Part shown: piece after piece, positions 15,734-41,733 of the stretch
How positions within the stretch are numbered: position 1 is the first letter of the stretch
How the letters are laid out: each line of letters starts with the position of its first letter
DNA from: Anoxynatronum buryatiense
GTDB taxonomy: Bacteria; Bacillota; Clostridia; Peptostreptococcales; Tindalliaceae
DNA length: 64,000 nucleotides
Direction: 5' to 3'
NCBI RefSeq assembly: GCF_900182905.1
Contig: NZ_FXUF01000005.1
Span: 186,001 to 250,000 of the forward strand
The notes under the pieces: model-generated
Told to the model about the DNA's origin: nothing
The model's database searches: none
What the model saw: the letters and a program-made list of their open reading frames with translations, nothing else
Position numbers and translations under genes: made by a program

Positions 15734-15773
15734 GAAAAAGAGATGTATGGCAATGTCAAGCGCCTGTTACATC
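15734..15773 (-). terminator. Possible expression-platform terminator of the c-di-GMP riboswitch
   Basis: On the minus strand GATGTA (15768-15773) pairs with TACATC (15742-15747), with an inner GGC/GCC, followed by TCTTTTTC. It lies between the aptamer and the ribosome site. The first copy of ATTGCCAT belongs to the aptamer and a second copy lies in this hairpin, so the two could compete for the same 5' strand. Whether ligand turns the gene on or off cannot be decided by eye. Confidence 0.5.
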
Positions 15774-15775
15774 AT

Positions 15776-15860
15776 GGCAATCCGGCTGTCTTGTTTTTTC
15801 TTCACTTGCAAGACCCGTGATTTTGCGTCCCTGCCTTCCGACAGGTTTGCCTTTTTCATG
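15776..15860 (-). ncRNA. Cyclic di-GMP-I (GEMM-I) riboswitch
   Basis: The minus strand carries the class hallmarks in order: AAAGGCAAACC, a first hairpin ending GGAAGGCAGGGACGCAAA, a second hairpin with ACGGGTCTTGCAAG and CAAGAC, and the closing GACAGCCGGATTGCC. P1 is GGCAA/TTGCC. These match the conserved core of c-di-GMP-I riboswitches, including the GGGACGCAAA ligand-pocket stretch and AGCCGG. It sits about 80 nt upstream of the DUF4832 gene on the same strand. Confidence 0.95.
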
Positions 15861-41224: not shown

Positions 41225-41351
41225 CCCCATCCCTCCATTTTATGTCTGTTAACTGACTGATTCCATTATATCACATCACTTTCCGAAAGCAGTCATCACC
41301 GGGTGTTTCGCTGATAAAAGTGTTTTATCAAAAACAAAATGAAATTCTCTG

Positions 41352-41380
41352 TTTAAAGAAAACGCCCTGTGGTATATAAA
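41352..41380 (+). promoter_or_regulatory. Promoter of the plus-strand structured RNA
   Basis: TTTAAA (41352-41357, counting the closest six bases) and TATAAA (41375-41380) are about 17 bp apart on the plus strand. The predicted start, seven bases on, falls at 41387, exactly where the closing stem of the RNA begins. Confidence 0.6.
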
Positions 41381-41386
41381 GAACAC

Positions 41387-41733
41387 AATAGATTCCGGTA
41401 GTTCCCTGCCAGTCTCGGTGGACAGCGAAGAAACTGATGGCTCTGATGATTCATCAGGAGTCGAAACCTTTTGGTTTCAACAGATTTTCGCACGACCGAA
41501 GCACCACCGGCGAAAGCCGGACAAGGGACACAGGTGAAGTTGCTTCATCTGAAATCCCTGCAGCACCGCAGTTCCTGGAAAACCTGGTTTTCCAAATACC
41601 GTAGAAAGGCGTTGGTCTATGAACACAGAGCACACTCTCCCACCAAAGTATGAAAGGGGCTGGCACAGCTACTTCCGAATCTATTATGAATAAGCGGGCG
41701 TCTCATCCACAGCGATGAAGGCGTCCGTTTTCT
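41387..41733 (+). ncRNA. Structured non-coding RNA of about 345 nt, family not identified
   Basis: The only plus-strand gene I see. Its ends pair: AATAGATTC (41387-41395) with GAATCTATT (41677-41685), then GTAG/CTAC, GCCAG/CTGGC (41408-41412 with 41660-41664) and GGTGG/CCACC (41417-41421 with 41640-41644). Inside are local hairpins at 41443-41457, 41463-41478 (GAAACC-TTTT-GGTTTC), 41507-41520 (CCGGC-GAAA-GCCGG, a GNRA tetraloop), 41532-41550 and 41576-41594 (TGGAAAAC/GTTTTCCA). A U-tailed hairpin follows at 41696-41733. No ORF of note lies in it. It lacks the sequence cores I know for RNase P, tmRNA, SRP RNA and T-box. It lies between rpmE and the flavoprotein gene, convergent with rpmE. Confidence 0.8.
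41696..41733 (+). terminator. Terminator of the plus-strand RNA
   Basis: GGGCGTCTCATC pairs with GATGAAGGCGTCC (one bulge) around a six-base loop, followed by GTTTTCT on the plus strand. Confidence 0.75.

What the first reader, a model, noticed from the sequence alone, without database searches (positions are those of the whole stretch)
41352..41733. Unidentified plus-strand structured RNA with promoter, closing stem and terminator
In a window where every protein gene is on the minus strand, this stretch alone shows a plus-strand promoter (TTTAAA-N17-TATAAA), a nine-bp stem joining the first and last bases (41387-41395 with 41677-41685), three further nested long-range helices and at least five local hairpins, one with a GNRA loop, and then a U-tailed terminator. 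The predicted start falls exactly on the closing stem. I cannot match it to RNase P, tmRNA, SRP, T-box or the riboswitch cores I know. It may be a known Clostridia RNA such as raiA, OLE-like or 6S, or a new one.
Basis: partly seen in the sequence, partly recalled or inferred. Interest (0 to 1): 0.85.

Follow-up and report, generated by a model that had tools for sequence, protein, structure and literature searches.

The report
Ring-folded RNA encoding a tiny peptide
This is a previously uncatalogued bacterial gene, found in several families of clostridia, whose short RNA encodes a conserved peptide of about 24 amino acids and folds so that its very first bases pair with the end of that peptide's coding sequence; what the peptide and the fold do is unknown.

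Summary
A plus-strand transcription unit sits at 41350-41732: promoter, an RNA folding better than every shuffle (z -7.6), and a terminator. No Rfam family matches it or 12 homologous loci. The interpretation as a noncoding RNA needs changing. The 3' part is a small gene: Shine-Dalgarno at 41603-41609 and a 24-codon ORF at 41619-41693 (MNTEHTLPPKYERGWHSYFRIYYE), whose stop abuts the terminator. I collected 35 copies from five families of Peptostreptococcales (named genera: Tindallia, Alkaliphilus, Natronincola, Geosporobacter, Thermotalea and others). All keep the ORF (consensus MxNxxPPKxxxDWYSYFRFYY), Shine-Dalgarno and terminator. All also keep a long-range helix between the first ~28 nt of the RNA and the last codons of the ORF: 24 pairs, 97.1% of cells paired, 13 pairs with compensatory changes, 0/500 shuffles. 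The bulges in this helix are conserved too. The middle is variable; the window's five hairpins are lineage-specific filling. The helix does not hide the Shine-Dalgarno and no antisense promoter is seen, so it is not a hok/AapA-type toxin mRNA by those tests. Best explanation: mRNA of a new micropeptide, locked into a ring that ribosomes must open. Peptide function unknown.

The parts
41350..41380 (+). promoter: TGTTTAAA ... GGTATATAA (-35-like TGTTTA/TTTAAA; extended -10 GGTATATAA)
   Evidence: Motif unique in window; same motif upstream of the 5' helix strand in relatives
41387..41416 (+). 5' strand of the long-range helix: AATAGATTC-C-GG-TAGTT-CCC-TGCCAGTCTC, at the predicted transcript start; bulged C 41396 and CCC 41404-41406 conserved
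   Evidence: Covariation with 41656-41685 in 35 sequences
41417..41602 (+). variable middle (5' UTR) with lineage-specific hairpins, including a GNRA tetraloop hairpin
   Evidence: z -2.9 in window and -2.9 to -3.1 in two Tindalliaceae relatives, near 0 in most Alkaliphilus-family copies
41603..41609 (+). Shine-Dalgarno AGAAAGG, 9 nt before the ATG
   Evidence: Shine-Dalgarno-like purine run upstream of the ORF in all 35 copies
41619..41693 (+). micropeptide ORF, 24 aa: MNTEHTLPPKYERGWHSYFRIYYE
   Evidence: Intact in 35/35 homologs, frame-preserving indels, wobble changes at PPK, no stops
41656..41685 (+). 3' strand of the long-range helix, inside the last codons of the ORF: GGGGCTGGCA-C-AGCTA-CTT-CC-GAATCTATT; bulged CTT 41672-41674 conserved
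   Evidence: Covariation
41694..41732 (+). intrinsic terminator starting directly after the stop codon
   Evidence: Stem folds at -20.2 kcal/mol; terminator directly after the stop in the homologs

Best explanation
The element is a stand-alone small gene. Its mRNA encodes a conserved micropeptide of about 21-28 residues without signal peptide or membrane-spanning stretch, and the mRNA closes on itself by a conserved helix between its extreme 5' end and the last ~10 codons of the ORF, next to the terminator. Shown here: the ORF, the helix, the conserved bulges, the promoter motif and the terminator. Inferred: the RNA is made faster than it is translated, the ring closes first, the paired 5' end protects the RNA from 5'-end decay, and every ribosome must melt the helix to finish the peptide. 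Peptide output and RNA stability would then be coupled, with the conserved bulges possibly bound by a factor that strengthens or weakens the lock. The aromatic C-terminal half (WYSYFRFYY) suggests a peptide that works at a membrane surface or on a protein partner; this is inference only.
For: Long-range helix: 24 pairs in 35 sequences, 97.1% of cells paired, 13 pairs with two-sided changes, 61 such cells, 0/500 shuffles; slid controls pair only 21-43%. It forms, at least in part, in unconstrained MFE folds of 33 of 35. Coding: intact ORF, Shine-Dalgarno and start in 35/35; indels are codon-sized; PPK changes are almost all at wobble positions, with 0 stops and the highest synonymous fraction in frame 0. 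The model used to find distant copies contained only the 3' part, yet the copies it added also had the matching 5' strand. The stand-alone unit is kept at one locus, antisense inside the rho-rpmE-prmC-prfA cluster, in three families and elsewhere in two others.
Against: No transcript or peptide has been observed. The 5' and 3' strands are also conserved as a bare hairpin without an ORF in two genomes of a sixth family, so the hairpin may have a role that does not need the peptide. Compensatory changes sometimes alter the peptide (F to S, R to Q), so the RNA can dominate over the peptide. The proposed effect on decay and translation is untested.
Confidence: 0.6

Rival explanations
1. Dual-function or sensor RNA: the folded RNA, with its conserved bulges, is the active product or a binding site for a protein or small molecule, and translation of the ORF serves mainly to open or close the structure (for example by sensing stalling at the near-invariant PP codons).
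For: Conserved unpaired bases in the helix (C10, C18-C20, C54-T56 of alignment A4); a C at the wobble position of a tyrosine codon kept in 33 of 35; the hairpin kept without ORF in two genomes; compensatory changes kept at the cost of peptide residues in G011, G050 and G012.
Against: No conserved downstream gene to regulate; peptide residues and frame are conserved outside the helix too.
Confidence: 0.25
2. Toxin mRNA of a type I toxin-antitoxin system, held inactive by a 5'-3' interaction as in hok and aapA.
For: Small ORF, stable predicted full-length fold, 5'-3' long-distance helix next to the terminator; similar layout to AapA mRNA (PMC6733600).
Against: The helix pairs with the ORF end, not with the Shine-Dalgarno, whose accessibility is 0.50 with and 0.44 without the 5' strand. 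No antisense promoter enrichment (2 of 35 loci against 4.8 in shuffles). Peptide has no hydrophobic membrane-spanning stretch. Kept at one chromosomal locus over several genera; no plasmid or phage copies found with one 113-nt query.
Confidence: 0.09
3. A purely noncoding structured RNA in which the ORF is a coincidence of RNA sequence conservation.
For: Part of the ORF lies in the helix, and the bare-hairpin variants lack an ORF.
Against: Start, Shine-Dalgarno, frame, PP motif and stop kept in 35/35, including the part outside the helix; indels are codon-sized.
Confidence: 0.05

Closest known systems
AapA/IsoA and Hok/Sok toxin mRNAs
   Same: Short RNA with one small ORF, long-range 5'-3' helix, strong fold
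   Different: There the interaction occludes the Shine-Dalgarno and an antisense RNA exists; here the 5' strand pairs with the last ORF codons, the Shine-Dalgarno is left free, no antisense promoter is seen, and the peptide lacks a membrane-spanning stretch
Large clostridial structured RNAs (raiA, OLE, ROOL, GOLLD, 6S)
   Same: Stand-alone structured RNA in Firmicutes with promoter and terminator
   Different: No Rfam match at gathering score in the window or at the gene in 12 homologous loci; this family is defined by a micropeptide ORF and one long-range helix around a variable middle
sORF-type intergenic candidates of the Breaker-laboratory genome surveys (PMC6429828, PMC11109978)
   Same: Conserved short ORFs in intergenic regions, some with RNA structure
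   Different: No mention of Alkaliphilus or rpmE in the main text of these two papers; their supplements could not be checked
N-terminus of a bitopic membrane protein of another clostridial family (P[PK][KR]FT[KR]xWWxYFWxYYKWH)
   Same: Looks like the micropeptide (PPK...DWYSYFRFYY)
   Different: Part of a roughly 220-280-residue membrane protein; similarity is short and may be convergent

Membership tests
Any Rfam 15 family (raiA, OLE, 6S, T-box, riboswitches, tmRNA, RNase P, SRP) | covariance-model score above the curated gathering threshold | tested here: not met
   window; 12 homologous loci; the single hit is a T-box elsewhere in L143
hok/AapA-type toxin mRNA (type I toxin-antitoxin) | 5'-3' long-distance helix in a small-ORF mRNA | tested here: met
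hok/AapA-type toxin mRNA (type I toxin-antitoxin) | the long-distance helix sequesters the Shine-Dalgarno | tested here: not met
   SD unpaired 0.50 with and 0.44 without the 5' strand; 5' strand x SD pairing no better than shuffled
hok/AapA-type toxin mRNA (type I toxin-antitoxin) | overlapping antisense RNA antitoxin | tested here: not met
   No sigma70-like antisense promoter in the RNA and fewer than in shuffles across 35 loci; other promoter types not covered
hok/AapA-type toxin mRNA (type I toxin-antitoxin) | toxic, usually membrane-spanning peptide | tested here: inconclusive
   No hydrophobic stretch in the peptide alignment (by inspection); toxicity not testable here
Riboswitch or leader | consistent co-directional downstream gene | tested here: not met
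   downstream gene is convergent in the rpmE-prmC locus and differs in the other families
Conserved small-protein (sORF) gene | conserved start, stop, Shine-Dalgarno and coding-type substitutions | tested here: met
Conserved small-protein (sORF) gene | match to a known protein family | tested here: not met
   No hit in NCBIfam, PHROGs or Pfam, only E about 0.25 in PDB sequences
Conserved small-protein (sORF) gene | peptide detected in cells | not testable with these tools
   Needs ribosome profiling or mass spectrometry

The most novel reading that the evidence does not exclude
A translation-gated RNA ring: the 5' end, the last codons of a micropeptide and the terminator form one conserved lock with a specific bulge motif that senses ribosome passage (for example stalling at the near-invariant Pro-Pro), so that RNA fate and peptide output form a single switch, a regulatory layout that I do not know from any described system.
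Probability: 0.15. Interest if true: 0.85.

Novelty: new variant of a known kind. Interest (0 to 1): 0.62.

Why it matters
It adds an RNA family that is absent from Rfam and a micropeptide family that is absent from Pfam, NCBIfam and PHROGs, present in 35 of 395 sampled Peptostreptococcales genomes. It is a clean case in which one stretch of sequence is constrained at once as codons and as one side of a long-range RNA helix that starts at the first base of the transcript. That makes the question of what 5'-3' closure does for a bacterial mRNA, apart from hiding the Shine-Dalgarno, directly testable by compensatory mutagenesis.

Tried and rejected
Rfam membership: none. An alternative switch in which the 5' strand pairs with the GTTGATA next to the Shine-Dalgarno: duplex energy -11.1 against -10.5 for shuffles, rejected; GTTGATA is better read as extended Shine-Dalgarno complementarity (the reading is my inference). 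Shine-Dalgarno occlusion by the closing helix: rejected. Antisense antitoxin: no promoter. A special sigma factor from the GTTTAA-N14-GGTAT motif: the motif occurs four times in the genome, the other three also lying upstream of ORFs including an nrdD-like gene, so it looks like an ordinary extended -10 promoter; an automatic promoter alignment over the 35 copies was too loose to be useful. Bacteroidetes, proteobacterial and viral hits of the 5' pattern that I could inspect: 3' partner missing, taken as chance (part of the output was cut). Homologs elsewhere in Clostridia by RNA model and peptide profile: only chance or look-alike hits. Plasmids and phages: none. Structure prediction of the peptide was not run (24 residues, below the tool's minimum of 30).

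Full report
Observation. The stretch 41352-41733 was checked directly. The promoter, the exact nine-base closing stem (41387-41395 with 41677-41685) and the terminator are all there. The plus strand folds far better than dinucleotide shuffles (z -7.6) and better than the minus strand (z -3.7). No Rfam family matches it at its curated threshold, and with E up to 10 only chance-level hits appear.

Homologs. blastn in 60 relatives found copies in the same genus, family and order. The 5' motif ATAGANTCCGGTAGNTCCC occurs in 25 of 395 genomes of the order, while the control (the pattern read backwards) gave a single match in the whole table. Named records include Tindallia, five Alkaliphilus entries, Natronincola, Geosporobacter, Anaerosolibacter and Thermotalea. 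Tindallia belongs to Tindalliaceae, order Peptostreptococcales; the window's genome is in the same family as the Tindallia record. A model built only from the 3' part found 35 of 395 genomes of the order and no true copy outside the order among 391 genomes of the class. I kept 35 copies from five families.

A small gene inside. In all 35 the 3' part is an ORF of about 21-28 codons with Shine-Dalgarno, ATG, GTG or TTG start and a stop that abuts an intrinsic terminator (for some copies the exact start among alternatives is uncertain). In the window it is MNTEHTLPPKYERGWHSYFRIYYE, 41619-41693. The consensus is MxNxxPPKxxxDWYSYFRFYY. Length differences in the ORF are codon-sized, PP-to-motif spacing is 9 or 10 codons, changes in PPK are nearly all at wobble positions, and frame 0 has no stops and the highest synonymous fraction in the part outside the helix. 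No protein family matches.

The RNA helix. Pairing the first 28 nt with the last codons of the ORF gives 24 pairs. 97.1% of cells pair, 13 pairs have two-sided changes (61 cells), and no shuffle of 500 reaches any of the five measures; sliding the partner by 1-3 columns drops pairing to 21-43%. Three sequences have one base fewer in the 5' strand and were aligned with an N there. Cells are not independent events, but distinct compensatory replacements fall in different families: A-U to U-A at pair 7-61 in Tindalliaceae, G-C to A-U at 5-63 in family f6, U-A to C-G at 13-53 in f7, C-G to G-C at 23-45 in the Thermotalea family. Duplex energy of 5' with 3' strands averages -27.0 against -9.6 for shuffled 5' strands, and the stem forms wholly or in part in unconstrained folds of 33 of 35. 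The helix carries conserved bulges: C on the 5' side, CUU on the 3' side, and a three-base, mostly CCC, bulge on the 5' side. In G011, G050 and G012 pairing is kept although the peptide changes (F to S, R to Q).

What is not conserved. The middle between 5' strand and Shine-Dalgarno varies from about 60 to over 500 nt. It has structure in Tindalliaceae and in family f6 (z near -3) but not in most Alkaliphilus-family copies; in two genomes it is filled with AGTAGTAA repeats. The window's five local hairpins belong to this part.

Genome context. In three families the unit sits on the opposite strand inside the cluster rho - rpmE - (tdk) - [DUF1385-like or FAD oxidoreductase] - prmC - prfA; in two families it is elsewhere; there is no constant downstream gene (names other than those matched to window proteins are from sequence recognition). 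One 113-nt query found no plasmid or phage copies.

Mechanism. The helix does not occlude the Shine-Dalgarno (unpaired 0.50 with, 0.44 without the 5' strand) but covers the ORF end (0.21 against 0.41); no antisense promoter is enriched. This separates it from AapA and hok mRNAs, where the long-distance interaction hides the Shine-Dalgarno (PMC6733600). I infer a ring-closed mRNA whose 5' end is protected, which ribosomes must open at the last codons. The stop-abutting terminator fits Firmicutes, where RNA polymerase can outrun ribosomes (my own knowledge, not checked here). Steps shown: gene, ORF, helix, bulges. Steps inferred: stability, translational coupling, membrane or partner binding.

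Possible clue to peptide function. The N-terminal cytosolic segment of an unrelated, widespread membrane protein in another clostridial family reads P[PK][KR]FT[KR]xWWxYFWxYYKWH. The likeness is short and was found by searching with the micropeptide's own model, so it is a lead only.

Noticed in passing
window 15772-15860 (-): c-di-GMP-I-GGC riboswitch, 73 bits, above its gathering score.
   Followed up: no
L146:4050-4101 (-) and L147:4190-4279 (-): In two genomes of family f5 (one is Maledivibacter) only the closing hairpin with its conserved bulges and a terminator remain, without ORF, next to genes that look like sigI-rsgI.
   Followed up: partly
L140, about 1440-1560: Directly upstream of the gene lies a short remnant with the same promoter, AATAGAAAC...CTCTATTT and a nearly identical terminator: a tandem deletion derivative.
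   Followed up: no
L144:4100-4500: Second, diverged copy in the same genome with a longer peptide (MTDMTDNSPPKSKTGWYSYFKFYFKQQNHR) and altered helix.
   Followed up: partly
L034 and L030, middle of the RNA: Middle region expanded by tandem AGTAGTAA-type repeats to about 500-650 nt.
   Followed up: no
L113:1491-2160 and L166-L181: Conserved membrane protein of another clostridial family whose N-terminus resembles the micropeptide; no Pfam family above cut-off.
   Followed up: partly
L182, L183, L185: The same promoter motif TGTTTAA-N13-15-GGTAT occurs three more times in the genome, each time upstream of an ORF, including an nrdD-like gene.
   Followed up: partly
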